DNA of 64,000 bases, from the NCBI RefSeq assembly GCF_000381265.1, contig NZ_KB906273.1:1-64000 (forward strand), read 5' to 3'. The notes under the pieces are model-generated. The model was not told the DNA's origin. It made no database searches and saw only the letters and a program-made list of their open reading frames with translations. The stretch is from Curvibacter lanceolatus ATCC 14669 (lineage in GTDB: Bacteria > Pseudomonadota > Gammaproteobacteria > Burkholderiales > Burkholderiaceae_C). The position numbers and the translations under genes were made by a program. The first letter of the stretch is position 1. Every line of letters begins with the position of its first letter. Below are positions 14,413 to 50,897 of this stretch, in pieces.

Positions 14413-15336
<924 letters not shown>

Positions 15337-15413
15337 ACGCCGTCAATGAACGCCGTCAGCCCCCCGGCCCTGCCCTACCCTGCCCCCCGCCCCCGATTTT
15401 TCTGCCACCGATC

Positions 15414-16265
15414 ATGTCCAGCCCCATCACCGATCCCACCCCCCTCAGCTACCCGCCCCCGCCCTCGGTGTGGCGGGCGCCCAGCCTGTCCACCCGCTGG
15501 TGGCCCGTGTTCCTGCGCAACCTGCTGGTGTGGCGCAAGCTGGCCATCCCCAGCCTGGTGGGCAACATTGCCGAGCCGCTGATGTGGCTGGTGGCCTTCG
15601 GCTACGGCATGGGGGCCCTGGTGGGGCAGATCACGGTGCATGGCCCCGACGGCGACACCCAGGTGCCCTACATCCTGTTCCTGGCCAGCGGCTCGATCTG
15701 CATGAGCGCGATGAACGCGGCCTCGTTCGAGGCCCTGTACTCGGCGTTTTCGCGCATGCACGTGCAAAAGACCTGGGACGGCATCATGAACGCCCCCGTG
15801 GGCCTGGACGACGTGGTGCTGGCCGAGATGCTGTGGGCCGCCTTCAAGGCCTTGTTCACGGTCACGGCCATCATGGGCGTGATGCTGGCGCTGGGCATCA
15901 GCCACAGCCCCAAGCTGCTGCTGGCCTGGGGCGTGCTGCTGGGCGTGGGGGCCATGTTCTCGAGCATCGCGCTGATCTTCAATGCCCTGGCCAAGGGCTA
16001 CGACTTCTTCACCTACTACTTCACCCTGGTGCTGACGCCGATGATGTTCCTGTCGGGCATCTTCTTTCCGCGCGAGCAGTTGCCCGAGCTGGTGCGCCTG
16101 GCCTCCGAGTGGCTGCCGCTGACCAATGCCGTCGAACTGGTGCGCCCCCTGTTCATGGACCGCTGGCCCGAACACGCGCTGCGCCACGGTGCCGTGCTGT
16201 GCGGCTACACCGTGGCCGCCTTCTGGCTGGCCCTGGCGCTGACGCGCAAGCGCTTCAGGGGCTGA
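15414..16265 (+). CDS. nodJ: ABC-2 type permease, NodJ type
   Basis: A 283-residue inner-membrane permease with six hydrophobic segments. It contains WWPVFLRNLLVWRKLAIPSLV before helix 1 and the ABC-2 signature region around PMMFLSGIFFPREQLP, followed by the NAVELVRPL turn typical of NodJ. The frame is open far upstream, but that part is an out-of-phase reading of the ATPase gene; the ATG at 15414 gives the usual length. It forms the membrane half of the exporter with the preceding ATPase. Confidence 0.85.
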   Translation: MSSPITDPTPLSYPPPPSVWRAPSLSTRWWPVFLRNLLVWRKLAIPSLVGNIAEPLMWLVAFGYGMGALVGQITVHGPDGDTQVPYILFLASGSICMSAMNAASFEALYSAFSRMHVQKTWDGIMNAPVGLDDVVLAEMLWAAFKALFTVTAIMGVMLALGISHSPKLLLAWGVLLGVGAMFSSIALIFNALAKGYDFFTYYFTLVLTPMMFLSGIFFPREQLPELVRLASEWLPLTNAVELVRPLFMDRWPEHALRHGAVLCGYTVAAFWLALALTRKRFRG

Positions 16266-16287
16266 GCGCAGCGCTCAGGCCAATCGG

Positions 16288-17856
16288 TCACGGCAAGCGC
16301 CGCTGCCAGGCCACCAGCAGGGCCGCCAGCAAGGCCATGGCCGCCAACAGGCGGTACAGGTCTTCGCAGGCCAGCAGCAGGGCCTGGTTGTCGAGCAAGG
16401 CCGACAGTTGGGCCAGCGCGCCCAAGTGGGCCTGCTCAGGGCTGAAGCCTCGGGCCTGCAGGGCCCCGGCCATGCTCGCCATCCAGTGGCTCACACCCGG
16501 GCGATCCGGGCTCAGCCCGACCAGCAGTTCATCGTGCAGCGCAAACTGGCGGTTCTGCAACATCACGGCGGCCACGGCACTGGCCCCTGAACTGGCCATC
16601 TGGCGCATCAGGTTTTTGCCCTGGTAGCCGTGGGCAAAACCGTGGTCGCCAAGCTCTCGAAAGGTCAGGCCGGCCACAGGCAGCACCAGCAGCACCCCGA
16701 AAACGCCCTTCAGCAGCAGGGCCGGCAGCAAGGCGCCCACCGACACCCCGGCCGGCTGGCTGGCCAAGCCCCATGCGCACAAGGCCAGCGACAGCAGGCC
16801 GGCCAGCATCAGCGGCCGCTTGTGCGGCAGCCGGCCAGCCCAACGGATGTAGGCCCAGGCCACCACCAGACTGGTCACACCGGCCAGGCTGTTGAGCGCA
16901 CCCGTGGTGGTCAAGGGCAGGCCCAGGCCGCGCTCGGCATAGATGGGAAAGAGGTAGGCCGCGAAGTTCGACAGAAAGTAGTGCACAAAGTACAGGCCCA
17001 GCCCCACCAGGTACACCGGGCTGTTGAGCTGGCGCAGGTGCAGCAAGGGCGTGGGGTGACGCCATTGATGCCACAGGAACCCCACCAGCAAGCCCGCGCC
17101 AGCCAAGCCCAACAAAGCCAGCCTCAGCGGGTGGGCCAACACATCCAGGCGGGCTTCGGAGAAGCCCCACTGCAGACACAGGGCCGCCAGCGCAAAACAC
17201 AGCAGGGGCCCCACCATGCTGCGCCACGAGGCCAGGTCCGCGGCCGGCCCGCCAGGCTGACGGCCCACCGAATCGGGCAACCAGCGCCACAGGCCCAGGG
17301 CCACCACCAGCACCGCCGGCAACACGCCCACGAACACCGAGGCCCACCCCCAGCGCTCGATCAGGCTGGCGGCGCACCAAGGGGCCAAGGCCGTGGCCGA
17401 CATCATCAGCACCATGAAACGGCGCATGGCCTGGGGTCGGTCAACAGGGGCAAACAAGAGCAGCACCAAGACCCGGGCGGCGGTGAAAAACGCGCCACCA
17501 CCCAGGCCCTGCACCCCCCGGGCCAGCGCCAGTTGCGGCAAGCTGCCACTGGCCGAGCAGCCCAGCAGACCCAGCGCAAACAGGCCCAAGGAGACGCTCA
17601 GCACGCGCCGATAGCCCCAGCGCTGCACCAGGCGCTGCTGCAGCACGATGGCCAGCAGGCTGCCAACGGCATAGGCAGCCTGAGCTCCGACAAACTCGGC
17701 CGGCGCGGCGGCAAGCCCCCCCATGACGTGGGCGGACGAGAACACAAACATCACGTTCTCAAAAAACTCCAGCGCCACCAGCAAGCCCAGCAGGGTCATC
17801 AGGCGGTGCTTGCGCGTGGCATGGCCTCGCAGCAACAGGTGCAGCAGGGGCTTCAT
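16288..17856 (-). CDS. MFS transporter, DHA2-type (about 14 TM)
   Basis: A 522-residue membrane protein with about fourteen hydrophobic segments, as in EmrB-like drug:proton antiporters. Seen are QRWGYRRVLSVSLGLF in the loop after helix 2, GGGAFFTAARVLVLLLF on helix 4-5 and the repeated Leu/Ala-rich helices to the end. Substrate is unknown. It converges on the NodJ-type gene with a 22-bp gap. Its promoter must lie in 17857-18325. Confidence 0.8.
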   Translation of the reverse strand: MKPLLHLLLRGHATRKHRLMTLLGLLVALEFFENVMFVFSSAHVMGGLAAAPAEFVGAQAAYAVGSLLAIVLQQRLVQRWGYRRVLSVSLGLFALGLLGCSASGSLPQLALARGVQGLGGGAFFTAARVLVLLLFAPVDRPQAMRRFMVLMMSATALAPWCAASLIERWGWASVFVGVLPAVLVVALGLWRWLPDSVGRQPGGPAADLASWRSMVGPLLCFALAALCLQWGFSEARLDVLAHPLRLALLGLAGAGLLVGFLWHQWRHPTPLLHLRQLNSPVYLVGLGLYFVHYFLSNFAAYLFPIYAERGLGLPLTTTGALNSLAGVTSLVVAWAYIRWAGRLPHKRPLMLAGLLSLALCAWGLASQPAGVSVGALLPALLLKGVFGVLLVLPVAGLTFRELGDHGFAHGYQGKNLMRQMASSGASAVAAVMLQNRQFALHDELLVGLSPDRPGVSHWMASMAGALQARGFSPEQAHLGALAQLSALLDNQALLLACEDLYRLLAAMALLAALLVAWQRRLP

Positions 17857-18325
17857 GGGGTGGCGAGGCGGCCTGAGCAGCCGCCGCAGGGCTGGCCGCA
17901 GCCCAAGATCCGCAAGACAGCGAGCCCAGGGGCTTGTGCTTGCCTGTGGTGGCCCTTGGCGCAGGTGTTCATCAGGGGCTTTCAGGAGGTGTGTGGGGGA
18001 TGTCGGAGGGGGGCGGTGGGTGAAGACTCAGACCAGACCGCCAGAGCCTGCGGCAATTTAAGCCCGGCTTGGCCAGCGCCAGGGCCAAGGGCGCAAATGC
18101 CGACATTTGTCGACAGCCCTTGCGTTTGAAATCACCGACCATCCCAACCAATCAACCGCTGGCGAATGCGGACCGGGGGCGCCCAAGGCCATCAGCGAGC
18201 CAAGCAAGCACAACACCTTGCACCCTCCCCGCCCCTACCCGCCCCTGCCCGCTGACGGGCCATCACAGGAGCACAGAACACAGACAAGCAGACGCGCGGC
18301 GGCCGAAGCAACCGGCTTCAGGGGC
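17857..18325. other. Intergenic region upstream of DHA2 MFS gene
   Basis: No gene is supported in these 469 bases. It holds two small dyads: CTTGGCC/GGCCAAG (18068-18074 with 18083-18089) and CAAATG/CATTTG around a four-base loop (18094-18109). The first may be a regulatory site for the MFS gene. The second may form part of the 3' end of the eight-gene operon, but no T-run follows it. Confidence 0.4.
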
Positions 18326-19648
18326 TCACACAGACGCCACCGGCTTTTGCAGGCCTTGCGCCAACGGCGCACACACCATGGCAGCCAGGCACAGCACCGC
18401 AGGCACGCCCCACAGGGCGCTGGGCCAGTGGTGCGACAGGCTGCCCATCAACACAGGCAATGCGCCACCCGCGATGGCCTGGGCCAGGTTGTAGCTGGCG
18501 GCGATGCCGGTGATGCGCAAGGGGGCCGGAAACAACCGGGCCATGGGCGCCAGAACCACCGGCACCAGGCCAGCGTTGAGTGCCCCGATGGCAGACCAGG
18601 CCCAAAACACCGTCTCGGGCGTGACCTGGGCATAGAACCACACAAGGCCGATGATGTTGAGCACGGCAAAGGCGATGATCACCCGTGCGCTGCCAAAGCG
18701 GTCCGCGGCCGCCGTGGTCAGCAGCGTGAAGACCATCGCACTGGCCGTCAGCCCCATCTGGGCGGAACTCATCAAGGCCCGGGGCCACTGCATCTCGACC
18801 TGGAAGTACGCCACCGGGTAGAGCTGCACCGTCTGGATCAGCCCCCCCGACACCAACGCCAGGCCGATGGCCACCAGCAACTCGCGCCGGTAGCGCGTGA
18901 ACAAGGCCGAGAACGGCAGCCGTTGCGCCGAATGGGCAGCCTGGGCCATCTGCAAGAACACGGGCGACTCCTTGACGCTGCGCCGCAGGTAGACCGAGAA
19001 CAGGCCGAACAAGCCGCCCGCCAGAAACGGCACGCGCCAACCCCAGCCCAGGTAGTCGGCTTGCGGCAACTGGCTGGACAGCAGCAGGATCACACCCGCC
19101 GCCAGCAATGACCCCAGGCCGAAGCCCACCGTCAACAAGCCGATGGCGAAACTGATGCGGTTCTCGGGCACCGTCTCCATCACATAAGAGGCCGCAGCCG
19201 GAAACTCGCCCCCCATGGCCAGGCCCTGACCTGTGCGGCAGAGCAGCAAGAGAATGGGCGCGGCGGCACCGATCTGGGCATAGGTGGGCAGCAGGCCGAT
19301 GCCCAGCGTGCCCAGGGCCATCAGCAGCAAGGTGATGCCAAACAGGCGCTTGCGCCCGATGCGGTCCCCCAGGGCCGCCAGCACCGTGCCGCCCAGCGGC
19401 CGCACCAGGTAGCCCACCGCGTAGATGCCCAGCACCTGCAACTGGGCCAGCCAGGGCGCGACATCCGAGGCCGAGAACAGCTTGCTGATCACCGGGCTCA
19501 TGTGCAGAAAGACCACGAACTCATAGAACTCCAACGCGCCCCCGAGCGTGGACAGGCTCAGCACCTTCCAATGCTCTGCGCTGATGGCGCCCGTGCCCGT
19601 GCCTGTTCCAGACCCCGGGGCGTTTTCAAAAGGTTCAACAGCAGCCAT
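18326..19648 (-). CDS. MHS-family MFS permease (metabolite:H+ symporter)
   Basis: A 440-residue permease of the metabolite:H+ symporter group, with twelve predicted helices. Typical segments are STLGGALEFYEFVVF at helix 1, ALGDRIGRKRLFG in the helix 2-3 loop, and RTGQGLAMGGEFPAA at helix 4. Members take up dicarboxylates, aromatic acids, betaines or similar compounds. It is the last gene of the eight-gene minus-strand operon, one base after the thiolase stop, so it most likely imports the pathway substrate or a related acid. Confidence 0.88.
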   Translation of the reverse strand: MAAVEPFENAPGSGTGTGTGAISAEHWKVLSLSTLGGALEFYEFVVFLHMSPVISKLFSASDVAPWLAQLQVLGIYAVGYLVRPLGGTVLAALGDRIGRKRLFGITLLLMALGTLGIGLLPTYAQIGAAAPILLLLCRTGQGLAMGGEFPAAASYVMETVPENRISFAIGLLTVGFGLGSLLAAGVILLLSSQLPQADYLGWGWRVPFLAGGLFGLFSVYLRRSVKESPVFLQMAQAAHSAQRLPFSALFTRYRRELLVAIGLALVSGGLIQTVQLYPVAYFQVEMQWPRALMSSAQMGLTASAMVFTLLTTAAADRFGSARVIIAFAVLNIIGLVWFYAQVTPETVFWAWSAIGALNAGLVPVVLAPMARLFPAPLRITGIAASYNLAQAIAGGALPVLMGSLSHHWPSALWGVPAVLCLAAMVCAPLAQGLQKPVASV

Positions 19649-19649
19649 A

Positions 19650-20870
19650 TCAGTCCACCTCCACCATCAAACTCACCACCGTGCCCAGCGAGCCCCCGAT
19701 GTTCAGGGTCTGCACGCGCCAGGCGCCTTCGATCTGACAGGCCCCGGCCTGGCCGGTGACCTGACGCGCCGCATCCAGCAGCATGCGAGCGCCGGTGGCC
19801 CCCACCGGGTGGCCGGCGCCGATCAGGCCTCCGCTGAGGTTGATCGGGCAGCGGCCACCGCGCTCGATGCTGCCGTCGGCAATCGCCTGCCAGCTCTGGC
19901 CGGGCGGCGTGAGCCCCAGGTGATCGATGGCCATGTACTCGGTGCTGGTGAAGCAGTCGTGCGTCTCCACCCCGTGCACCGCATCAATGCCTTCAATGCC
20001 CGCGCGGCGCCAGGTGTCCTCGATGGTCTGCCGCACGTGGCCAAACACATAGGGCTGGCCCCGGCTGCGCTCAAGCTTGTCGCGCAGGCGCAGCCCCGCA
20101 TTGCGGTGCCCCCAGCCGCTGATGCGCGCCAGGCCCTGGCAAGAGCGGCCCTGCGCCTGCAAAAAGCGCCCCGAGGCCAGCACCAGCGCGCAGGCGCCAT
20201 CGGTGATCTGGGCACAGTCCTGGCGCCGGCTGCCAGGCTCGATCACCGGGTTGGCCTGGTCGTCGTCGGTGAAACTCAGCGGGTCGAACTGCCAATGCCG
20301 GGTCTGGGCCAGCGGGTTGAGGCGGGCGTTCCCGTAGTTCAACTCGGCAATGCGGTTGAGGTACTGGCGGTCCAGCCCATAGCGCTCGGCATAGGTCTGG
20401 GCCACCAGACCAAATGCAGCCGGCCACATGAAGCGGCACTCGATGTCTTCCCGCCCTTGCCAGGAGGCCGCGTTCTGGTTGCGCGAGGCCTGGTCACCCG
20501 GCAGATTCTTGAGCTCTTCCACGCCCAGCACCAGCACGCAGTCGTAGCGGCCGGCCTCGATCTCGGCCATGGCGGCCAGCACGGCCAACGAAGAGGACGC
20601 ACAGGCGCCCTCATGGCGCATCGCGGGCACGCCCCACAGCTCGGGCACCACCTGGGCCACCATGGCGCCCAGGTGCCCCTGCTGCCGCTGCAGTTCGGCA
20701 AAGGCGTTGCCCACATGGATGCTGCCGATGTGCTCCGCCCCCACGCCGCTACCGGCCAGGGCGCCCAGCGTGGCTTCACGCACCATGTCGGAGATGTCCT
20801 GCCCCTGGCGCGACCAGGCGCGCGCAAAGTCGGTCTGGTAGCCGCCCAGGATGTAGATGGCTTCGCTCAT
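19650..20870 (-). CDS. Thiolase-fold acyltransferase (SCP-2/acetyl-CoA acetyltransferase-like)
   Basis: A 406-residue thiolase-superfamily enzyme. The nucleophilic Cys is at about 90 in RHEGACASSSLAVLAA, the first active-site His lies in HGVETHDCFTSTEY and the second in GGLIGAGHPVGATGARM. This spelling fits the SCP-2-like thiolases rather than the biosynthetic PhaA type, and some relatives lack full thiolase activity. In a degradative operon it would release acetyl- or propionyl-CoA from a beta-ketoacyl-CoA. Its ATG overlaps the preceding stop (ATGA, 20867-20870). Confidence 0.85.
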   Translation of the reverse strand: MSEAIYILGGYQTDFARAWSRQGQDISDMVREATLGALAGSGVGAEHIGSIHVGNAFAELQRQQGHLGAMVAQVVPELWGVPAMRHEGACASSSLAVLAAMAEIEAGRYDCVLVLGVEELKNLPGDQASRNQNAASWQGREDIECRFMWPAAFGLVAQTYAERYGLDRQYLNRIAELNYGNARLNPLAQTRHWQFDPLSFTDDDQANPVIEPGSRRQDCAQITDGACALVLASGRFLQAQGRSCQGLARISGWGHRNAGLRLRDKLERSRGQPYVFGHVRQTIEDTWRRAGIEGIDAVHGVETHDCFTSTEYMAIDHLGLTPPGQSWQAIADGSIERGGRCPINLSGGLIGAGHPVGATGARMLLDAARQVTGQAGACQIEGAWRVQTLNIGGSLGTVVSLMVEVD

Positions 20871-21832
20871 GACGGATTCCTTGGCTGTCGTTGAAGAAAG
20901 CGCCCGCAGGCTTGTCGGTACTCGTGCTCGATCTGGTCCACCACCTCAGACAAGGGCTGAATGGCCCGGATGCTGCCCACGCCCTGGCCTGCGGCCCAGA
21001 CATCGCGCCACTGGCGGGTACCGCTGTCATGGCTGTCGTAGCGGCGCTCGGGCGCCGACGGCAGCCGGTCCGGGTCCAGGCCATGGGCGCGCAAGGAGGG
21101 CTTGAGCCAACTGGCCGGCGTGCCGGTGATCGCGTCGCTGACGATGAGGTCGTCCACCTGGGCATCGACCAGCATCTGCTTGTAGGCCGGCGCCGCCAGG
21201 CTTTCCTGGACTGCGATGAAACGCGTGCCCATGTACACCGCGTCGGCGCCAGCCGCCAAGGCACCGGCCACGCCCCAGCCGTCGCTGATGGCGCCGCCCA
21301 CCACCAGCAGGCCATCGAAGAACTCGCGCACCGCACTGACAAAGGCAAATGGGTTCAAAGAACCGGTGTGCCCGCCGGCCCCGCCACAGATGCAGGCCAG
21401 CCCATCGGCCCCCGCCGCCACCGCTTTGCGGGCCAGTGTGAGGTTGACCACATCGGCCAGCACCCGGCCGCCGTAGCGCTGGACCACGGCCAGGGCCGGC
21501 GCCGGGCTGCCCAGGGCGGTGACCACCAGCGGTGGCTTGAAGCGGGCCACCAGTTCCAGGTCTTGCGCCAGCCGGGTGTTCGATGAATGGGTCACCAGGT
21601 TGGCGCACCACGGGCCCAGGGGGTGTGGGTGGGGCTCGTCGCGCGCCCGCGCCAGGCCCTCGGTGATCTGTTGCATCCACTGGCCCAGTTGGGCGATGGG
21701 ACGGGCATTGGGGGTGGGGAAGGCCCCCACCACGCCGCTGCGGCAGGCCGCCAGCACCATCTCAGGGCCGGACACCAGGAACATCGGGGCCACCACCACG
21801 GGCAGACGCGACTCGGAAGGCCATGGTGTCAT
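20867..21832 (-). CDS. Nitronate monooxygenase-like flavoprotein
   Basis: A 321-residue FMN-dependent TIM-barrel protein of the nitronate monooxygenase/2-nitropropane dioxygenase family. Visible are the N-terminal PVVVAPMFLVSGPEMV, the flavin-binding GADGLACICGGAGGHTG, and VVGGAISDGWGVAGALAAGADAVYMGTRF. Family members oxidise alkyl nitronates, but many operon-borne copies have other or unknown roles, including reduction of acyl-CoA-type substrates. The ATG at 21832 overlaps the hydrolase stop by one base; TTG 21835 is not needed. Confidence 0.85.
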   Translation of the reverse strand: MTPWPSESRLPVVVAPMFLVSGPEMVLAACRSGVVGAFPTPNARPIAQLGQWMQQITEGLARARDEPHPHPLGPWCANLVTHSSNTRLAQDLELVARFKPPLVVTALGSPAPALAVVQRYGGRVLADVVNLTLARKAVAAGADGLACICGGAGGHTGSLNPFAFVSAVREFFDGLLVVGGAISDGWGVAGALAAGADAVYMGTRFIAVQESLAAPAYKQMLVDAQVDDLIVSDAITGTPASWLKPSLRAHGLDPDRLPSAPERRYDSHDSGTRQWRDVWAAGQGVGSIRAIQPLSEVVDQIEHEYRQACGRFLQRQPRNPS

Positions 21833-22593
21833 CAACGGGCCTCCATGCCGGCCGCCTGCGGGGCCGTGGCGGGATGGACCTGCCGAACCCGCAGCAGCAA
21901 AGCCTGCACTGCAGATGCCACACCCTCAGGTGCCTCGTACGGACTCAGGTGCCCTGCCCCAGGCAGCCAACACAACTCGGCACCCGGAATCAAGGCCGCC
22001 AGCTCACGCGACAGGTCGGGGGGCGTCACCAGGTCGGCGTCGCCGCACACCACCTGCACCGGCATCTGCAGCCCACGCAGAAAGCCTCGGGCATCAGGGC
22101 GTCGCATCAGCAGACGGTGCTGTCGCGCCGCAGCCTCGGGGCCGATGGCACGCAGCTGCTCGCGTGCGCGCGCCATCCAGGCATCCTGCTCATGGAAGCG
22201 CGGGTGGCTGGCATAGCGGCTGAGCCCGGCCACCACCTTGTCGAAGTCACGCGCGATGGCGGCCACCGCCTTCTCGCGGGCCTGCAGCAGCTCGGGCGTG
22301 TCCGCCTGGGCAGAGGCCCCGAGCAGAACCAGACCGTACACCCGCCCCGGGTGCTGCTGCAGCATCTCGTAGGCGACCCAGGCCCCCATCGAGTAACCGC
22401 AGACCACCAGGGGCTGATCGGGGTGCAGGTCATGCAGCAGCGACCAGGCATCCTGCGCCATCTGGGCCAGCCCCGATTGGCTGGCCACTTCGGCAAGACG
22501 GACGTCCAGATCGGGGGGCAGCCAGGGCAGGACATCGGTCCAGATGTCGGGCGTGTTCAGCATGCCCGGAATGAGCAACAAGACAGGTTTCAC
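21832..22593 (-). CDS. Alpha/beta hydrolase
   Basis: A 253-residue alpha/beta hydrolase. The oxyanion region is LLLIPGMLNTPDIW, the nucleophile elbow is VCGYSMGAW, the acid is in VVCGDADLVTPP and the His is in GAGHLSPYEAPEGV. The substrate is unknown; in this operon it may open an ester, lactone or thioester. The frame runs open to 22845 but overlaps the acyl-CoA ligase; GTG 22593 (44 bp after the ligase stop) gives normal length, though its ribosome site is weak and TTG 22605 is possible. Confidence 0.8.
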   Translation of the reverse strand: MKPVLLLIPGMLNTPDIWTDVLPWLPPDLDVRLAEVASQSGLAQMAQDAWSLLHDLHPDQPLVVCGYSMGAWVAYEMLQQHPGRVYGLVLLGASAQADTPELLQAREKAVAAIARDFDKVVAGLSRYASHPRFHEQDAWMARAREQLRAIGPEAAARQHRLLMRRPDARGFLRGLQMPVQVVCGDADLVTPPDLSRELAALIPGAELCWLPGAGHLSPYEAPEGVASAVQALLLRVRQVHPATAPQAAGMEAR

Positions 22594-22637
22594 AGCAGCT
22601 TTCAAAACAGGGTTGTCATGGGGCCGGGTGATGGCAC

Positions 22638-24332
22638 TCAGGCCGCAAAGCGCTGACGCAGTTCCCGCTTGAGCAGCTTGCCCACCGGGTTGCGGGGCAA
22701 CTCGGGCAGCACCATCAGATGCTCGGGCAGCTTGTAGACGGCAATGCGCTGGGTGCGCAGGTAATCGGTGATCACCTCCAGGGTCAGCACATGCCCGGGC
22801 ACCGGGGCGACGCAGGCACAGACCCGCTCGCCCAGGGTCTCGCACGGAACGCCGATGACGGCCACCTCCTTGACACCCGGGCAGGCCTGCAGCAGCCCTT
22901 CAATCTCTTCGGAAGAGATGTTGATTCCACCGCGGATCACCAGGTCTTTGCAGCGCCCGACATAGCGGTAGAACTGCCCCTGGTCGCCGGCGATTTCGAA
23001 CAGGTCCCCCGATTTGTAATAGCCCTGAGCGTCAAAGGCCTTGGCCGTCAATTCGGGCGCGTTGAAGTAGCCGCTGAACACCGTGGGGCCGTCGTAACGC
23101 AATTCACCGGCTTGGCCGGGCTCGGTGATGTCGCGCTCGGTGTCCAGGTCGACCAGGCGGGTCTGCACCCCGCGGCGAGCGGCACCGGCGCGTGGGAAAA
23201 ACTGCGCCCGCTGGCGCGGGTCGGGCATGTCGAGCGCCCCCCCGCCCAGCGAGGCTCCCTCGTTGGAGCCGAAGTAGTTGACGATCTGCACGCCGTAGCG
23301 CTCGGCAAAGGTGCTGACCATCCACTCGGACAAAGGGGCTGATCCGGACCCGATGCGCCGCAGCCGTGTGAAATCGATCCCGCTCAGCAACTGCTCGTTC
23401 TGCAACAACATGTTGAGCACGGCCGGCGGAGCCACGGTGTAATCGATGGCCTCGTCGCGGACCTGCTGCAGGAACACCTCCAGGTTGAAGGGATGGTGCT
23501 GCACCAGGGTGGCCCCGAGCCGCAGCGCGGTGCAGAACGCCGTGGCGATGCCCGCCATGTTGATCATGGGGAAGGGGTTGAGGATGCGGATGTGAGGCCG
23601 CAACTCGGCCACCTCGATCACCCCCGGCAGCAGGGCCAGCCACTCGTTGTGACTGCGCGGCACGGCCTTGGGTGCCGCCTCCGTGCCCGATGTCCAGCAG
23701 AGGCTGAACACATCATCGGCGGTCACACCGGCCTCAGCGGCGCGGCGCTCGACCCGCGCCAGATCAGCGCTGGACAGCGGCACCGCCAGGGCCTGCCCGA
23801 TGTCTCGGACGCCCGCCGGCAGGTCTGCCCCCCAGGCCAGGAGGCGGGTGCCTGGATGCGCCTCCCGCAGCCACCCGTCAAAGAACGCAGCGGCCCGATG
23901 GGCCCCGCCTCCCCGACCGATGCGCGAACAGGTGACCACGGTGCGGGCCCCGCTGGTGCGCAGGATCTGCGACAGCTCATGTTCGCGGTACTGCACCGGC
24001 ACCGGGGTGATGACGATCCCCAGCCGGGCGCAGGCCAGATAGACCACGTGCTGCTCGACGCAGTTGGGCAACTGCACCAGCACCACGTCGTCGCGCTGCA
24101 GGCCCTCGTCGATGAGCAAGCGGCAGAAGGTGTCCACCTCCAGGCCCAGTTGCACCCAGGTGAGGCGCCTCGGTGCGCCGTCCGTGAAATCGGTGCGGTT
24201 GAAGGCATCGACAGCTGCCTCGGCGTCGGGGCGCTCACGGCGCTGGATTTCAAACAGGTCCCAGAGGGTCTGCTGTCCCCACCAGCCCTGCGCCTTGTAC
24301 TTCTCTGCTTTGTCGGGTGTAACCAGGATCAT
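22638..24332 (-). CDS. AMP-forming acyl-CoA ligase
   Basis: A 564-residue acyl/aryl-CoA synthetase. The phosphate loop is CWTSGTEAAPKAVPRS (with Glu and Ala where many have GxTGxPK), followed by YFGSNEGASLGGG in the A5 region, YKSGDLFE, RYVGRCKDLVIRGGINISSEEIE (A8 hinge), and NPVGKLLKRELR holding the catalytic Lys. It activates a carboxylic acid as the acyl-AMP then CoA thioester. In this operon it sits between the carotenoid-oxygenase-type enzyme and hydrolase, consistent with activation of the acid formed after cleavage and aldehyde oxidation. Confidence 0.88.
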   Translation of the reverse strand: MILVTPDKAEKYKAQGWWGQQTLWDLFEIQRRERPDAEAAVDAFNRTDFTDGAPRRLTWVQLGLEVDTFCRLLIDEGLQRDDVVLVQLPNCVEQHVVYLACARLGIVITPVPVQYREHELSQILRTSGARTVVTCSRIGRGGGAHRAAAFFDGWLREAHPGTRLLAWGADLPAGVRDIGQALAVPLSSADLARVERRAAEAGVTADDVFSLCWTSGTEAAPKAVPRSHNEWLALLPGVIEVAELRPHIRILNPFPMINMAGIATAFCTALRLGATLVQHHPFNLEVFLQQVRDEAIDYTVAPPAVLNMLLQNEQLLSGIDFTRLRRIGSGSAPLSEWMVSTFAERYGVQIVNYFGSNEGASLGGGALDMPDPRQRAQFFPRAGAARRGVQTRLVDLDTERDITEPGQAGELRYDGPTVFSGYFNAPELTAKAFDAQGYYKSGDLFEIAGDQGQFYRYVGRCKDLVIRGGINISSEEIEGLLQACPGVKEVAVIGVPCETLGERVCACVAPVPGHVLTLEVITDYLRTQRIAVYKLPEHLMVLPELPRNPVGKLLKRELRQRFAA

Positions 24333-24359
24333 GTCTACTCCTGTTGAGTTAAGAGGTGC

Positions 24360-25805
24360 TCAATAACCGCGGCGCAGGCGCGCCGCACTGACCCAGGTGC
24401 CATGGAAGCCATGGGGCACGCGGTGGGGCAAGCGGATGCGGGCCACCGGGCCGCGGCTGATGTCACGCGCATCAAAAACCACCACGAAGGAAGCCTGGCG
24501 GTCGTCGTCCCACATGAAGCCGACCAGGTAGCCGTCGTCCTCGGCTTGTGGGTTGTCTGCGGGTGCGAAAGGCGCCTCGCTGAACCAGCGGCCCGTGCCT
24601 TCGTGGTAGGTGGTGCAGACATTGCGTTCCAGGTCGTAGCGCACCAGACCGGCAAAGCGGGGCTCCTCGGGGCGCCGCTGGCGGGCCATGAGCACGTTCC
24701 AGGAGTAACGCGTCTTCAAGCCCTGCATCGCCGAATTGATGACCGCAAACTCCTGGTTGATGATGTCGTCGATGATGCGTTCGCGGGTCTGCCCGGTGCG
24801 CAGGTTGAAGCGCCACTCATAGAACATGAAGTCGTTCTCCAGGTGCGCCAGCATCTTGGGAAAGCCCGCCACATCGATCTCGCCCCGGGCATCGCGGGGC
24901 AGGCGGAAGGGGGTGCCCGTCATGACGATCTCGGTGCCGCCGTGGCCGTCGTCCTCCTCCCAGGCGTTGGAGACGTGGTACATGTAGGTCGGGCTGGCCT
25001 CGAACCACCGGATCTGATCGGGTGTGCCGTGCCGTGGCACCACGGCAAAGCGCGAGGGCATGTCGTGATAGAACTTCAGCTTGTGCCGGCCCGCGGCAAA
25101 GGCGTCCATGTCGTAGAACAGCGGGAAGTCGTGCAGGATGGTGTAGTTCGGGGTGATGGCCATGTCGTGCGGCAGACGGGGGCCAGGCAACTCGACAGGG
25201 ATGAAGGTGGTCAGTTGGTGATGCCTGTCCATCACCCCGTAGTGCATGTAGGGGGCCTCTTTGCCATAGGCAAAGAACAGGAACTCGCCCGTGGTCTCGT
25301 CCACTTTGGAGTGCGCCGAAATCGGCACGCCCTTCAGTCGCGGATCGAATTCCAGTCGCCCCTCGGTGGACAGGTCGTTGGGGTTGACCTGGTACACCGC
25401 ACCGCCCAGGTACCACATCGAGATCAGCTTGCCTGCGTAGAACTTCACATCGGTGTTCGAGGTGTTCTTCATCGGCATGTCCGGCCGGTTCTTGCGCGGC
25501 GGGTCTTTGATGCCCTGCCACAGGGCCTGGCCGGCCGCCAGTTCCTCCTGCAGGCCATCGGTCTGCACCCAACGGTTCATGTAGTGGGCCTTGCCGCCTT
25601 CGAAACGCACCGCGTGCAGCATGCCGTCGCCATCGAACCAGTGGTAGCGGCCCGCGGCCTCAAAGCGGCGGTTGGGCCCGTTGCGCACGTGCATGCCCGA
25701 CAGATCCTTGGGGATCTCGCCTTCGATGTCGGTCAGCTCCACCGAGTGCTCCTGGTCGATGGGGGCAAAGCCGCCCTGGAGGACGGGGATGTCGTTCATG
25801 TTCAT
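24360..25805 (-). CDS. Carotenoid oxygenase / lignostilbene dioxygenase family protein
   Basis: A 481-residue seven-bladed propeller of the carotenoid-cleavage-oxygenase superfamily. All four iron-binding His are seen: about 165 (ISAHSK), 213 (PHDMAITPNY), 277 (YHVSNAWEE) and 468 (HGFHGTW). Length and spacing are like lignostilbene dioxygenases and isoeugenol monooxygenase, which split an alkene into aldehydes using O2. AAGGAG five bases before ATG 25805 decides the start over 25823. The surrounding ligase, aldehyde dehydrogenase, porin and permease suggest catabolism of an unsaturated aromatic or terpenoid compound. Confidence 0.9.
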   Translation of the reverse strand: MNMNDIPVLQGGFAPIDQEHSVELTDIEGEIPKDLSGMHVRNGPNRRFEAAGRYHWFDGDGMLHAVRFEGGKAHYMNRWVQTDGLQEELAAGQALWQGIKDPPRKNRPDMPMKNTSNTDVKFYAGKLISMWYLGGAVYQVNPNDLSTEGRLEFDPRLKGVPISAHSKVDETTGEFLFFAYGKEAPYMHYGVMDRHHQLTTFIPVELPGPRLPHDMAITPNYTILHDFPLFYDMDAFAAGRHKLKFYHDMPSRFAVVPRHGTPDQIRWFEASPTYMYHVSNAWEEDDGHGGTEIVMTGTPFRLPRDARGEIDVAGFPKMLAHLENDFMFYEWRFNLRTGQTRERIIDDIINQEFAVINSAMQGLKTRYSWNVLMARQRRPEEPRFAGLVRYDLERNVCTTYHEGTGRWFSEAPFAPADNPQAEDDGYLVGFMWDDDRQASFVVVFDARDISRGPVARIRLPHRVPHGFHGTWVSAARLRRGY

Positions 25806-25855
25806 GGGGGCTCCTTGGCTCATTGAAAAGGGGTGATGAGGAGTGATGGGCTCGC

Positions 25856-26986
25856 TCAGAAGGTGTGCTTGATGCCCGCGTAGATGAACTGCGAGCGAAA
25901 GCCCGCCATGCCCGAGGGCAATGGCAAGGTGTTGGTGGGGTACCAGAAGTCGTAGGCCGCATGGGCCTGGTTGCTGACGGTGGAATAGCTCATGGCCACA
26001 GAGCTGCGCTTGGACAGTGCGTATTCGTAACCCACCGAGAACATGCGGGCGCCGGTGTCAGCCACCGTCTGACCCCGGGCCTGGAAGGGGCGCGCCTCGC
26101 CATAAGTGACATGCCAAAGGTGGGGGCCTTGCCGATAGATCACGGGAATGGCCCAGGCATCCCGGCGAAGCGATTGCTCGGTCACGGCCGAACCTTCCAC
26201 CTGGTTGCGATCCCAGAGCACCGCCAGTTTCAAACCGCTGTCGAACTGGTAGGCCGCCCCCAGCCGATGGGCATGCTGGTCATAGCTCAGCCCAGCCTGC
26301 TCTGGGCCGCCTGGCTGCCGCGCCCGGTACAGGGTGTTCCAATACAGGATCAGTTGGCCGTCGTTGTAGCTGGGGTTGAAATTGAGCGTGTGGTTACCAG
26401 GCCGATCGGGGCTTTGCGCGTCAAAGCTGTAGCTCGCATTGAAGCCGGTGTTCAGCCAACGTGGTGAGTCATACCGCACCGTGTTGGACAGCATGCCACC
26501 CGCAAAGTAGCGCAGATTGCGCCCGATCGAGCCCAACACGTTGAGGGTGCCGCTGGCATAAGGGCCGGCGTCATATATGGCGTTGTGGCTCAGGGGCGCA
26601 TCGGCCGAGTAATAGGTCGGCCAGCGCCCGACCAGGAGCCGGCCCCAGGCCGGATTCTTCACGCCCACCGCCTGGAAACGAGGCGCCGACAGCGGTGTCC
26701 CCATCTCGCCCGTGGTGACGAGCAGGCCGTACTCCAGGTGAAAGAAAACCGCTGTCTGTGCCCCGAGCGATTCTTCTCCGCGCACATAAATCCAGGAGGC
26801 GTTGTCGCTCACCGCCAGGTTGTTGCGGGGATTGGCCACCGGCCGGTCATCGACCTTGCCACCGCTGTATCGCAAGCTGTCCACACCGACCTTGATCTGG
26901 CCGCCGAGAAACACCCCGTCTTGAGCCCTCAGGTCCGCGCTCAGGGCGCAAGCAACACTGGCTACGAGGATCAAAAATCTGGACAT
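25856..26986 (-). CDS. Outer-membrane porin
   Basis: A 376-residue Gram-negative porin of the burkholderial OmpC-like group. A signal peptide (MSRFLILVASVACALSADLRA) is followed by QDGVFLGGQIKVGVDSLRYSG, the repeated amphipathic strands (FHLEYGLLV, RNLRYFAGG, LGAAYQFDSGLKLAVLWDRN) and the C-terminal Phe needed for assembly (IYAGIKHTF). GGAGG upstream supports the ATG at 26986, two bases after the preceding stop. As part of the operon it probably admits the hydrophobic or acidic growth substrate. Confidence 0.88.
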   Translation of the reverse strand: MSRFLILVASVACALSADLRAQDGVFLGGQIKVGVDSLRYSGGKVDDRPVANPRNNLAVSDNASWIYVRGEESLGAQTAVFFHLEYGLLVTTGEMGTPLSAPRFQAVGVKNPAWGRLLVGRWPTYYSADAPLSHNAIYDAGPYASGTLNVLGSIGRNLRYFAGGMLSNTVRYDSPRWLNTGFNASYSFDAQSPDRPGNHTLNFNPSYNDGQLILYWNTLYRARQPGGPEQAGLSYDQHAHRLGAAYQFDSGLKLAVLWDRNQVEGSAVTEQSLRRDAWAIPVIYRQGPHLWHVTYGEARPFQARGQTVADTGARMFSVGYEYALSKRSSVAMSYSTVSNQAHAAYDFWYPTNTLPLPSGMAGFRSQFIYAGIKHTF

Positions 26987-26988
26987 GA

Positions 26989-28770
26989 TCAGCCCTCCTT
27001 CGAGCAAGACAAGGGGCGAGCCGGGCGCCTCACCTGGGCAATGCGAAAGCGCGCGCTCACAAAGGCCAGATCGGTCAGGCAGGCGTTGCCGGCCGGGTTG
27101 AGCCCGCTCACGTGGTAGTCGCTGTAGGCCGCAGCGAAATTGAGAGGCATCGGGCCGGTGAGGTTGAGCGTGAGCTGGGCGCCGGCAACCGCATACGCCT
27201 CTTCAGCCTGGGCGATGAAGCCCGGGTCTTTCGCATAGACAAAGGCCGTAAGGCCGCCAAACTCGGTGACATCAGCGCAGGCCTGCTGCAGGGCCGCCTG
27301 CGCGTCTTCGCACACGATGAGAAAGGCCACGGGCCCGAAACGCTCCTCGCCGTACAGCGCTCGTTCGGACCGGTTCACCTTGATGAGCAGGGGTGACGCG
27401 GTGCGGGCCTGCGGGAACTCGGGGTGAACGTAAGGCGTGGCGTGCCGCAACACCTGACCGCGGCGCGCCCCCTCACCGGTGAGCTCTTCCAGCAGGGCCT
27501 GCGTCTGCGCCGACTGCAGGGTGGCCAGCATCATGGCGGCGCGGCGCGGGTCGCCGGCGATCTGATCGATGAAGTGCACCAGGCGCTCGCCCACCTGCTG
27601 CACCGACACCCGCCCTTGGGAGGTGAGCACGCCGTCATGCGGCAGGTAGATGTTCTGCGGGCTGGTGCACATCTGCGCACTGAACAGGCACAGGCTGGTG
27701 GCCAGGCTGCGCAATGCGGCGTCCAGGTCGTCGGCTTCGGCCAGCACCACGGTGTTGCAGCCCGAGGTTTCGGTGAACACCAGGGCTTGCCCGGCGTTGC
27801 GCTCCACCCACTGCCCGAAGCGGGCACTGCCGGTGAAGTCGACGATGGCGGTGGCCGGGTGCTGTACCAGGCGCTTGCCCTGAGGCTCGGCCACGCTGTC
27901 GAGGCACAGCGTGACCAGGTTGGGGTCGAAACCGGCCGCCTGCAGCACCCGCCGGAACACGCGCACCGAAATCGCCATCGGCAGCACACAGGCCGGATGG
28001 GGCTTGACGATCACCGCGTTGCCGGTGGCCAGGCTGGCCATCATCGAAGGCCAGGCGTTCCAGGTGGGGAAGGTGGCGCAGGCAAAGCACACGGCCACGC
28101 CACGAGGTACCTTGCGGTAGGTTTTTTCAAGGCAGATTTCAGCCGTACCGAACGGGCGTGCCCACCGGGCCTGGGAGGGCACGTTCTGCAAGGCCTGGTG
28201 GGCATGGACCAGGGCCTCGATGGCCCGGTCCAGCGCATTCACGCCGGAGCCGGTGAACGCCATGTTGAAGCTCTGCCCGGCGGTGTGCATCACCGCAAAG
28301 GCCAACTCGAAAAGGTGCTGGCGGTACAGCACATCGACCACCTCCATCAACACGCCGAGGCGGGTGTTGACCTCGGCACGGGCCCAATCCGGCATGGCCG
28401 ATCTGGCGGCGGTGAACAGGGCATCGGCGTCGGCTTGCGGGTAGGCAATGCCGAGGGGCTGGCCGGTGTAGGGGGAGGTCTCCTCGCCCAGCCAGGCAGA
28501 GGTGCCGGGTTGTGACAGCTCGAAGGGCCGGCCCAACTGGGCCTGGTAAGCCGCCCCTCCCGCGCGCCGGGCCTCGACCGCCGAGGGGTAGAGCTCGGGG
28601 TGGTCTACAAAGGCGCTCCAATGACCTCGATCACGGCAAGCCGCTTGCGCCGCCTCAAAGCGGGGCAGATGCCGCGCATACAGATCGGCGCCGCAGGCTG
28701 CCTCTGATGGGGCCGTGACAGAGGGTTTGTCGCCGCTCCGCTCCGGAACGAAATGGGTCGTGGTGTTCAT
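26989..28770 (-). CDS. PaaN-type aldehyde dehydrogenase family protein
   Basis: A 593-residue protein of the PaaN-like branch of the aldehyde dehydrogenase superfamily. It has KVPRGVAVCFACATFPTWNAWPSMMASLATGNAVIVKPHP around the NAD site, IVDFTGSARFGQWVE, the Glu of FTETSGCNTVVL and the catalytic Cys in FSAQMCTSPQN. Such proteins oxidise aldehydes in phenylacetate-type or other aromatic routes. The frame stays open to 29046, but the ATG at 28770 starts the recognisable family sequence. It is the first gene of the eight-gene operon; the 498-bp gap upstream should hold the promoter. Confidence 0.82.
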   Translation of the reverse strand: MNTTTHFVPERSGDKPSVTAPSEAACGADLYARHLPRFEAAQAACRDRGHWSAFVDHPELYPSAVEARRAGGAAYQAQLGRPFELSQPGTSAWLGEETSPYTGQPLGIAYPQADADALFTAARSAMPDWARAEVNTRLGVLMEVVDVLYRQHLFELAFAVMHTAGQSFNMAFTGSGVNALDRAIEALVHAHQALQNVPSQARWARPFGTAEICLEKTYRKVPRGVAVCFACATFPTWNAWPSMMASLATGNAVIVKPHPACVLPMAISVRVFRRVLQAAGFDPNLVTLCLDSVAEPQGKRLVQHPATAIVDFTGSARFGQWVERNAGQALVFTETSGCNTVVLAEADDLDAALRSLATSLCLFSAQMCTSPQNIYLPHDGVLTSQGRVSVQQVGERLVHFIDQIAGDPRRAAMMLATLQSAQTQALLEELTGEGARRGQVLRHATPYVHPEFPQARTASPLLIKVNRSERALYGEERFGPVAFLIVCEDAQAALQQACADVTEFGGLTAFVYAKDPGFIAQAEEAYAVAGAQLTLNLTGPMPLNFAAAYSDYHVSGLNPAGNACLTDLAFVSARFRIAQVRRPARPLSCSKEG

Positions 28771-29268
28771 TCGGTTCGCTTCCCTGAAGACACGCACTTT
28801 AAAAAGCGAACAAGCCAGCCTGGCCTGGGTTTCCCCGAGCATGCTCACGACGAGCGGCCAGTTGATGGGAGGTACTTGAAGATGCCGTTGAATGACGCTC
28901 AATCGTCTCGATGGGCCCCGCGATCTCAAGGATTGATGCGGCCTTATGACCGGGAGACATGTGCCTCTCACAAGCCGACATGGCGTGTCCAAAGGCCTGC
29001 CCCTGACAGGGGCAATCCCCCTCAGACACCCACGACTACCCGTCATCCCCGCCTGGCTCTGGCGTCATCGGGCCATTCGTCTGCACAACGCAGACGACCG
29101 GCCCCAAAACGACGCCCAATGAAATGTCCATGCCGTGCAATCTGCACCGGGCGGGCTCCCTGCTGCGGCGCACCGGCCCTGCAACAACGCCCGCGGGCCG
29201 CCTCACTGGGACGGTCCGCGGGCATCCTTGGATGTCAGGAAGAAATGCGGTGCAGGCTCAGCGCCTGC
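28771..29268. promoter_or_regulatory. Upstream region of catabolic operon with dyad
   Basis: No gene is supported in this 498-bp gap. The strongest structure is a perfect dyad, TCGTCTGC (29087-29094) and GCAGACGA (29100-29107), around ACAAC, with GGCC blocks on both sides. It could be the operator of an unlinked regulator or a 3' hairpin of the hydrolase gene to the right; no T-run follows on either strand. A -10/-35 pair was not convincing. Confidence 0.4.
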
Positions 29269-30147
29269 TCAATGGCTTTTCAGGTGCGGCAGCAAGGCTT
29301 CCAGCAGCAGGGCCGCGGCCCCTGGGGGCAGGTCGTGCCCCATCCCCTCGATGCCGACCAACTGGGCGCCCCGGATGCGGCGCCGCGTGTCCTCACCACA
29401 GGCATAGGGCACCAGCGGGTCTTGCTTGCCGTGCAGCACCAGGGTGGGCGTGCGGAGGGTGCGCAGCTCTTCGGCCCGGCCGCTGTCGCACAGCACGGCC
29501 AACAATTGGCGCGAGGTGCCCACCGGGTGGAAGGCGCGCTGCAGGCCCAGCAGAATGCGCTCGCGCATCTGCTCCAGGTCGGCCGGAAAGGCCGGGCTGC
29601 CGATCAGCCGGTACAGCTTGATGAAATGCGCCAGCGCCTGGGCCGGGTCGGCCGGGGCTGGGGTCACCAGGGCACCCAGCACCTCAGGCGCCGCCTGGGG
29701 CAGGCCGGCCGCACCGCTGCTGCTCATGATGCTGGTGAGGCTGAGCACGCGCTGCGGGGCGGCCAAGGCCACGCGCTGCGCGATCATGCCCCCCATGCTG
29801 ACGCCCACCACATGGGCCTTGCGCACGCCCAGCGCGTCGAGCACGCCCAGGGCATCGAGCGCCATGTCGTGCACGGTGTAGGGGGGCTTGACCGGCAGGC
29901 CCAGCGGCAGGCGCGCCAGGGCCCAGGGCAGGTTGGGCGGGCCCAGCTCGTCGAAATACTGTGACAGGCCCACGTCGCGGTTGTCAAAGCGGATCACGCG
30001 GTAACCGGCATCGAGCATGGGTTGCACAAAGTACGGGGGCCAGGCGATCAGTTGCATGCCCAGGCCCATGATCAGCAAGACGGCGGGGGCGTCGTGCGGG
30101 CCCTGGTCTTCCACTTCGATGTTGATGCCGTTGGCGGTGATGTTCAT
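29269..30147 (-). CDS. Alpha/beta hydrolase
   Basis: A 292-residue alpha/beta hydrolase, close in layout to aclacinomycin-methylesterase-like and haloalkane-dehalogenase-like enzymes. The oxyanion region is LLIMGLGMQLIAWPPYF, followed by RVIRFDNRDVGLSQ, nucleophile elbow VVGVSMGGMIA, acid in LVLHGKQDPLVPYACG and His in EGMGHDLPPGA. The natural substrate cannot be told. The ATG at 30147 gives the usual family start (MNITANGINIEVEDQG); the frame is open upstream to 30276. It is separated from the catabolic operon by 498 bp. Confidence 0.85.
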   Translation of the reverse strand: MNITANGINIEVEDQGPHDAPAVLLIMGLGMQLIAWPPYFVQPMLDAGYRVIRFDNRDVGLSQYFDELGPPNLPWALARLPLGLPVKPPYTVHDMALDALGVLDALGVRKAHVVGVSMGGMIAQRVALAAPQRVLSLTSIMSSSGAAGLPQAAPEVLGALVTPAPADPAQALAHFIKLYRLIGSPAFPADLEQMRERILLGLQRAFHPVGTSRQLLAVLCDSGRAEELRTLRTPTLVLHGKQDPLVPYACGEDTRRRIRGAQLVGIEGMGHDLPPGAAALLLEALLPHLKSH

Positions 30148-30282
30148 AAGGTGCCTTTCTCGGGGGGAGGAAAAGGCAGACCGGAACCGGCCTGCCACCT
30201 GTCGGCCCCTTTCAGGCGGGCGCCCGCGGGGCCGACGCCTCATTGGCCCACAGGGCCCGGCCCCGATGGGCCCCACCCGTCC

Positions 30283-33387: not shown

Positions 33388-33486
33388 GGCCGGGCCCCCG
33401 ACGGGGCCGGTATCAGGGTTCGCCCCAGGGCCTGGGTGTCGCGCCGGTGAACGCCGGCGCCACGCCCGGCCCCCTAGCATGGGGCC

Positions 33487-46895: not shown

Positions 46896-50897
<4,002 letters not shown>

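What the first reader, a model, noticed from the sequence alone, without database searches (positions are those of the whole stretch)
18326..28770. Eight-gene catabolic operon built round a lignostilbene-type oxygenase
Seen: PaaN-type aldehyde dehydrogenase, porin, carotenoid-oxygenase-family enzyme with all four iron His, AMP-forming CoA ligase, alpha/beta hydrolase, nitronate-monooxygenase-like protein, SCP-2-like thiolase and MHS permease, all on one strand with gaps of 50 bp or less and two start/stop overlaps. Known: lignostilbene dioxygenases and isoeugenol monooxygenase split an alkene to aldehydes. Inference: uptake by porin and permease, C=C cleavage, aldehyde oxidation, CoA activation and thiolysis form a complete side-chain pathway for an unsaturated aromatic or terpenoid. 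The flavoprotein may act on an acyl-CoA step. No regulator is linked.
Basis: partly seen in the sequence, partly recalled or inferred. Interest (0 to 1): 0.7.

Follow-up and report, generated by a model that had tools for sequence, protein, structure and literature searches.

The report
Alkene-cleaving catabolic operon, substrate unknown
Eight bacterial genes in a row look like a pathway that imports a plant- or alga-type compound, snips one of its carbon-carbon double bonds with oxygen and burns the pieces; much of the same enzyme set recurs in distant bacteria, but what it eats is not known.

Summary
In detail: eight minus-strand genes, window 18326-28770, gaps of at most 44 bp, two overlaps, purifying selection (dN/dS 0.05-0.28). 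The core is a real module: among 250 family genomes, thiolase (>=72% identity) and NMO-like (>=68%) orthologues occur in the same 15, each with a carotenoid oxygenase within 20 kb. Most or all of oxygenase, CoA ligase, flavoenzyme and thiolase recur together in Alphaproteobacteria, Chloroflexota, Bacillaceae and Amycolatopsis, and on Cupriavidus plasmids. 'Lignostilbene-type' is not supported: the oxygenase is in another clade, nearest plant CCD1/VP14 among four characterised references, and Tyr101 and Lys134 are absent in 47 of 47 rows. Against strict linkage, 18 loci carry a 66-74% oxygenase without ligase, thiolase or ALDH, most on short contigs. The 'PaaN' enzyme is not needed for phenylacetate. 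Best reading: uptake of an organic acid, O2-dependent C=C cleavage, aldehyde oxidation, CoA activation, redox step, thiolysis; order and substrate are inferred. The operon lies in a 14-kb segment missing from the same site in two same-genus genomes. Nine paper searches listed no description.

The parts
26989..28770 (-). Aldehyde dehydrogenase, PaaN_2-like, first gene of the operon
   Evidence: TIGR02288 587.8 bits over cut-off 578.75; orthologues >=60% in 11 of 250 family genomes, all 11 with the module
25856..26986 (-). Outer-membrane porin
   Evidence: Porin_4 89.8 bits; 36-37% relatives beside the module on pENH92 and pRK1-2
24360..25823 (-). Carotenoid-oxygenase-family enzyme (CCD), proposed alkene-cleaving step
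   Evidence: RPE65 409.7 bits; four iron His in 36 of 36; AlphaFold model pLDDT 90.1
22638..24332 (-). AMP-forming acyl-CoA ligase
   Evidence: AMP-binding 197.3 and AMP-binding_C 52.5 bits
21832..22593 (-). Alpha/beta hydrolase (PcaD-like fold family)
   Evidence: Abhydrolase_1 65.5 bits; Ser-Asp-His in 12 of 12 aligned; start inferred
20867..21832 (-). NMO/FabK-like flavoprotein
   Evidence: NMO 68.7 bits; GGH motif in 22 of 22; same 15 genomes as the thiolase
19650..20870 (-). SCP2-type thiolase
   Evidence: PRK06289 575 bits; Cys90, HDCF 304-307 and His354 in 16 of 16
18326..19648 (-). MFS permease of the metabolite:H+ symporter (MHS) type, last gene
   Evidence: MFS_1 101.3 bits, TIGR00883 270 bits, below cut-off; 45-47% relatives on two Cupriavidus plasmids
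28771..29268 (.). 498-bp gap upstream of the operon, presumed promoter region
   Evidence: No gene called; no sigma-70-like match, so position is inference
29269..30147 (-). Second alpha/beta hydrolase just upstream, possibly associated
   Evidence: Abhydrolase_1 78.3 bits; 98% orthologue beside the G194 operon
16269..30282 (.). Accessory segment that holds the operon, with an EmrB-like MFS (16288-17856) at one end
   Evidence: Replaced by about 13 bp in G252; EmrB-like gene not found beside the G194 operon

Best explanation
The operon is a transferable catabolic module for an alkene-bearing compound, most likely an organic acid of plant or algal origin (apocarotenoid-like or other terpenoid, or a phenylpropanoid without a free 4-hydroxyl). 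Porin and symporter take it up. The carotenoid-oxygenase-family enzyme adds O2 across one C=C and leaves two carbonyl fragments. The aldehyde dehydrogenase oxidises an aldehyde to an acid; the alpha/beta hydrolase opens an ester or enol-lactone; the ligase makes the CoA thioester; the NMO/FabK-like flavoenzyme does a redox step on the acyl-CoA, most likely enoyl reduction; the SCP2-type thiolase cuts a 3-oxoacyl-CoA to acetyl-CoA and a shorter acyl-CoA. Shown: gene content, conserved catalytic residues, co-occurrence, selection, mobility. Inferred: every reaction, their order and the substrate class.
For: Thiolase and NMO orthologues in the same 15 of 250 genomes, all 15 with a CCD on the same contig; ALDH orthologues in 11, all within the 15. 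43 of 84 loci with a CCD have at least two of ligase, NMO and thiolase within 10 kb, 23 of 37 where 7 kb is held on both sides. Relatives in Alphaproteobacteria, Chloroflexota, Bacillaceae and Actinomycetes. MHS and porin travel with the module on two plasmids. Catalytic residues conserved: CCD His 36 of 36, thiolase Cys/HDCF/His 16 of 16, hydrolase triad 12 of 12. dN/dS 0.047-0.275.
Against: No substrate, expression or activity data. 26 of 84 loci have the CCD with none of ligase, NMO and thiolase (6 of the 37 with long flanks), so the CCD can work without them. ALDH and hydrolase are not in all clusters. That the substrate is an acid rests on transporter types (specificities recalled). Two thiolase-type clusters lack the SCP2 thiolase and have a classical one instead.
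Confidence: 0.6

Rival explanations
1. It is a lignin-type pathway: the oxygenase cleaves 4-hydroxylated stilbenoids or isoeugenol-like phenylpropenes to benzaldehydes and the other genes degrade them.
Against: Tyr101 and Lys134, which hold the 4-hydroxyl (PMC8191317), are absent in 0-mismatch fashion: 47 of 47 rows lack both; separate clade; far below curated lignostilbene cut-offs.
Confidence: 0.15
2. Two functions side by side: the oxygenase makes or removes a signal or pigment fragment on its own, and the ligase, NMO and thiolase degrade an unrelated acid.
For: 18 loci with a CCD of 66-74% and no ligase, thiolase or ALDH nearby, 13 of them within 250 bp of an srkA-like gene; Pararhodobacter aggregans has a hydrolase-NMO-ligase-thiolase group next to a CCD group.
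Against: Linkage of CCD with NMO and thiolase in 15 of 15 family genomes and across phyla.
Confidence: 0.12
3. The ALDH is a true PaaN and the operon is a variant phenylacetate or aromatic ring-opening pathway.
For: ALDH passes the TIGR02288 equivalog cut-off; nearest solved relative covers its whole length at 457 bits.
Against: The genome has PaaZ (992 bits) and PaaA (533 bits) 10 kb apart on contig C7; no PAA oxygenase in the operon.
Confidence: 0.05
4. A biosynthetic or carotenoid-modifying cluster rather than a catabolic one.
For: The nearest characterised enzymes in the tree are plant CCD1 and VP14, which make apocarotenoids (roles recalled).
Against: Porin, uptake-type permease, ligase and thiolase in the same operon. 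I did not search the genome for carotenoid synthesis genes.
Confidence: 0.05

Closest known systems
Plant carotenoid 9,10-dioxygenase CCD1 (Osmanthus fragrans, 9m6z/9m3e/7vud) and VP14 (3npe)
   Same: Fold, four His; highest sequence score in the PDB (241 bits), 31-34% identity; attached next to the window clade in the tree
   Different: Eukaryotic, not in a catabolic operon; identity low; substrate unknown here
Lignostilbene dioxygenases LsdA, LSD4, NOV1
   Different: Tyr101 and Lys134 replaced; separate clade; 166 bits for LsdA; no CoA ligase or thiolase reported in the passages read
Beta-ketoadipate-type ending (PcaD hydrolase, CoA activation, thiolase)
   Same: Order of hydrolysis, CoA activation and thiolysis as proposed; hydrolase best resembles PcaD models
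   Different: Hydrolase far below PcaD cut-offs (86.8 of 255.85 bits); ligase instead of CoA transferase; begins with a carotenoid oxygenase
Pinoresinol pathway of Novosphingobium rhizosphaerae LY (PMC12607616, passages)
   Same: A carotenoid-oxygenase-family enzyme cleaves an alkene inside a catabolic gene set
   Different: PinU is of lignostilbene type; no thiolase or nitronate term in the text

Membership tests
Carotenoid cleavage oxygenase (RPE65) superfamily | Pfam RPE65 match and four iron-binding His in a seven-bladed propeller | tested here: met
   409.7 bits; H171, H219, H283, H474 in 36 of 36; fold matches
Lignostilbene dioxygenase | Phe59 | tested here: met
   Phe63; Phe in 29, Tyr in 7 of 36
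Lignostilbene dioxygenase | Tyr101 and Lys134 | tested here: not met
   Ile105 and Trp137; 0 of 36 and 0 of 47 (there the Lys134 column falls on Tyr138, one place further) carry them; only LsdA itself served as positive control
Lignostilbene dioxygenase | Curated NCBIfam scores (800 and 650 bits) | tested here: not met
   218.7 and 200.5 bits
8'-apo-carotenoid 13,14-cleaving dioxygenase | Curated NCBIfam score (675 bits) | tested here: not met
   248.5 bits
SCP2-type thiolase | Nucleophilic Cys, HDCF and GHP motifs | tested here: met
   16 of 16; HDCF as thiolase motif from PMC12329534, passages
PaaN (TIGR02288) | Curated score | tested here: met
   587.8 of 578.75 bits
PaaN (TIGR02288) | Role in phenylacetate ring opening | tested here: inconclusive
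   Own PaaZ and PaaA elsewhere in the genome make it unnecessary, but activity was not tested
FabK enoyl-ACP reductase | Curated score (453.1 bits) | tested here: not met
   89.4 bits
Nitronate monooxygenase family (Pfam NMO) | Pfam gathering score | tested here: met
   68.7 of 28 bits
Nitronate monooxygenase family (Pfam NMO) | Oxidation of nitronates | not testable with these tools
   No assay
PcaD enol-lactonase | Curated score (255.85 bits) | tested here: not met
   86.8 bits; Ser-Asp-His triad present
MHS permease (TIGR00883) | Curated score (443.45 bits) | tested here: not met
   270 bits, best family match, full length

The most novel reading that the evidence does not exclude
A not yet described, phylum-crossing catabolic route in which an uncharacterised bacterial branch next to plant CCD1/NCED cuts an anionic isoprenoid or other plant alkenoic acid, and the cut itself makes the 3-oxo group that an SCP2-type thiolase cleaves after CoA activation, so that ordinary beta-oxidation steps are bypassed. 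Abscisic acid is one testable candidate: cutting its 2,3 double bond would give dehydrovomifoliol, a product known from ABA-degrading bacteria, for which the papers I looked at name no cleavage gene.
Probability: 0.25. Interest if true: 0.72.

Novelty: new variant of a known kind. Interest (0 to 1): 0.48.

Why it matters
Bacterial carotenoid-oxygenase-family enzymes are usually named by analogy with lignostilbene or apocarotenoid cleavage. A clade that travels with its own CoA pathway across phyla and on plasmids would be a catabolic route with an unknown natural substrate, relevant to the turnover of plant and algal compounds in soil and fresh water. Its recurring gene set makes the search for the substrate tractable.

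Tried and rejected
Isoflavone catabolism (ifc cluster, PMC11069340, passages): no 'carotenoid', 'nitronate' or 'thiolase' in its text. Pinoresinol pathway (PMC12607616, passages): lignostilbene-type enzyme, no 'thiolase' or 'nitronate'. Mycobacterial island MmGI-1 (PMC4263727, passages): its carotenoid oxygenase gene lies outside the island. Lignin-dimer review (PMC12997858, passages): only lists lsd genes. Abscisic acid papers: PMC9599779 (one passage; no 'oxygenase', 'thiolase', 'operon'), PMC6938937 (term search, no hit), PMC12509608 (whole text, no cleavage gene). Betaproteobacterial aromatic regulons (PMC6449761, one passage): a lipocalin-like gene in a bph operon. Paper searches listed no paper on this module in the part of the listings shown; most subscription journals and preprints are not held.
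Full report
What is there. Eight genes run on the minus strand from 28770 to 18326: aldehyde dehydrogenase (ALDH), porin, carotenoid-oxygenase-family enzyme (CCD), AMP-forming ligase, alpha/beta hydrolase, NMO/FabK-like flavoprotein, SCP2-type thiolase and MHS-type permease. With the porin start at 26986 and the hydrolase start at 22593 the gaps are 2, 32, 27, 44, -1, -4 and 1 bp. Against the operon of G194, the only fetched locus with the same eight genes in the same order, each gene shows purifying selection, dN/dS from 0.047 (thiolase) to 0.275 (porin).

The genes belong together. In 250 genomes of the family, thiolase orthologues of at least 72% identity occur in 15 (one more genome matches at 56%); NMO orthologues of at least 68% occur in exactly the same 15; all 15 are among the 22 genomes with a CCD match at 1e-60, with CCD, NMO and thiolase on one contig within 20 kb. 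The best CCD in the other 14 of these genomes ranges from 45 to 97% identity: eight are of the window type (73% or more, two of them cut by contig ends), six carry only paralogues at 45-60%. ALDH orthologues of at least 60% occur in 11 of 250, all within the 15. The hypergeometric p of 3.7e-19 ignores relatedness. NMO also has a more distant copy in most genomes: 234 of 250 have a match at 1e-70, at about 40-50% in the rows shown, so only the high-identity copies are informative.

Beyond the family. A scan of genome contigs kept 79 named loci (best 80 of more candidates); with five plasmid loci 84 carry a CCD of at least 40%. Of these, 43 have at least two of ligase, NMO and thiolase within 10 kb and 26 have none; of the 37 with at least 7 kb on both sides, 23 and 6. 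All four are seen in Neobacillus L120 and Anaerolineae L116; three in Bacillus L121, a Brevibacillus MAG L119 and Chloroflexi L115 (NMO, CCD, ligase); Pararhodobacter has CCDs, ALDH, NMO and thiolase; Amycolatopsis L125 has CCD, ligase and thiolase; Herbidospora has CCD and ligase. In the two actinomycete loci examined a luciferase-like flavoprotein is present instead of NMO, and both have a double-domain HxlR regulator like that of Comamonadaceae. On pENH92 of Cupriavidus necator NH9 and pRK1-2 of C. basilensis the module (NMO 50-51%, ligase 47-48%, CCD 42-43%, a classical thiolase rather than the SCP2 type) comes with an MHS permease (45-47%) and a porin (36-37%), so the window's transport genes are not bystanders. 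A Sphingopyxis granuli plasmid has ligase, NMO, SDR, ALDH, hydrolase, TonB receptor, Rieske oxygenase, CCD and a classical thiolase.

Counter-evidence. Eighteen loci (L072, L073, L075-L090; CCD 66-74%, many of them MAGs) show no ligase, thiolase, ALDH or operon hydrolase; one has a 28% NMO-family match. Only 2 of the 18 have 7 kb on both sides, so contig ends explain part of this, but in 13 of 18 the CCD sits within 250 bp of an srkA-like gene and in 7 within 3 kb of a nodJ-like gene. The oxygenase therefore seems to have a use without the module.

Not a lignostilbene dioxygenase by the tests available. The CCD scores 241 bits against plant CCD1, 186 against VP14 and 166 against LsdA. In a 60-row tree the 50 rows of the window clade and its paralogues are set off by a branch with support 100/99; CCD1 and VP14 attach next to them, and a 100/98 branch separates both from LsdA, the Novosphingobium enzyme and other Burkholderiales CCDs; the root is by midpoint only. 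LSD4 uses Phe59, Tyr101 and Lys134, the last two to hold the 4-hydroxyl (PMC8191317, abstract and passages). The LsdA alignment puts Phe63, Ile105 and Trp137 there; 0 of 36 and, with paralogues, 0 of 47 rows have Tyr and Lys at these places (in one search the Lys column falls on the neighbouring Tyr138). Five of the other Burkholderiales CCDs have Phe and Glu there, so LsdA is the only positive control. The model (pLDDT 90.1) fits LsdA, NOV1, VP14 and CCD1 about equally. This speaks against 4-hydroxystilbene or isoeugenol-like substrates; it is not an assay.

Other enzymes. The thiolase keeps Cys90, HDCF and His354 in 16 of 16; PMC12329534 (passages) gives HDCF for SCP2 thiolases and YDCY or YDHF for the related aldolases, so thiolysis is expected. 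The hydrolase keeps Ser, Asp and His in 12 of 12 (a thirteenth row was dropped for a stop codon). The NMO-like protein keeps the GGH His in 22 of 22 but is far below the FabK cut-off. The ALDH passes TIGR02288, yet the genome has PaaZ (992 bits) and PaaA (533 bits) on another contig, so the PaaN name does not show a role in phenylacetate breakdown.

Mechanism. Uptake, O2-dependent C=C cleavage, aldehyde oxidation, ester or lactone hydrolysis, CoA activation, flavin redox step, thiolysis. Only the parts and their conservation are shown. That the substrate is an acid rests on the transporter types that replace each other between clusters (MHS, Bug-type, LIV-type; specificities recalled). That cleavage creates the 3-oxo group rests on the absence of acyl-CoA dehydrogenase and hydratase from the core; both are inferences, and general beta-oxidation genes elsewhere could serve (an HADH and an ECH gene lie at 32539-34317, outside the operon; names by sequence likeness, not scanned).

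Setting. In G252 the nodJ-like gene (98% over the half held) abuts the ABC2 gene, and window 16269-30282 is replaced by 13 bp; in G251 the same two genes are adjacent. Only 2 of 9 genomes of the genus, the window's included, have the CCD. The segment has the G+C content of its surroundings (0.670 and 0.674). Whether it was gained here or lost in the others is not settled. The EmrB-like gene at 16288-17856 was not found beside the G194 operon.

Novelty. Nine paper searches listed nothing on a CCD-ligase-NMO-thiolase module. The enzymes are of known families; the clade and the combination appear undescribed in what I could search. Rated a new variant of a known kind.

Noticed in passing
window 14413-16265 and 44382-45446; L076-L083, L086-L090: The stretch between nodIJ-like ABC genes and an srkA-like kinase gene is a recurrent site for a lone CCD in Comamonadaceae MAGs and for the operon here; a possible hot spot of gain and loss.
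   Followed up: partly
L035 (G082), L041-L043 (G147), L044 (G186): Clusters with four CCD paralogues each: four in about 13 kb in G082, four in about 35 kb in G147, four on one 15.7-kb contig in G186.
   Followed up: partly
L095 363-4951: Pararhodobacter aggregans has a second hydrolase-NMO-ligase-thiolase group (33, 50, 36, 52% identity) upstream of its CCD group, without a CCD of its own.
   Followed up: no
L136 9104-11386: A Nostoc plasmid protein of about 760 aa carries the CCD match only in its last 460 residues; about 300 residues precede it.
   Followed up: no
L071: The module in Polaromonas sp. P2-4 appears as many partial matches in shifted frames, perhaps assembly errors.
   Followed up: no
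L072: A MAG record titled Bordetella parapertussis holds a lone CCD beside transporter-like genes; the species label may be wrong.
   Followed up: no
G000:C5:90106-91023: A second NMO/FabK-like gene (41%) of a kind present in most of 250 family genomes; role unknown.
   Followed up: no
window 46896-50897: A 1333-aa reading frame behind another at 45686-46855; not annotated.
   Followed up: no
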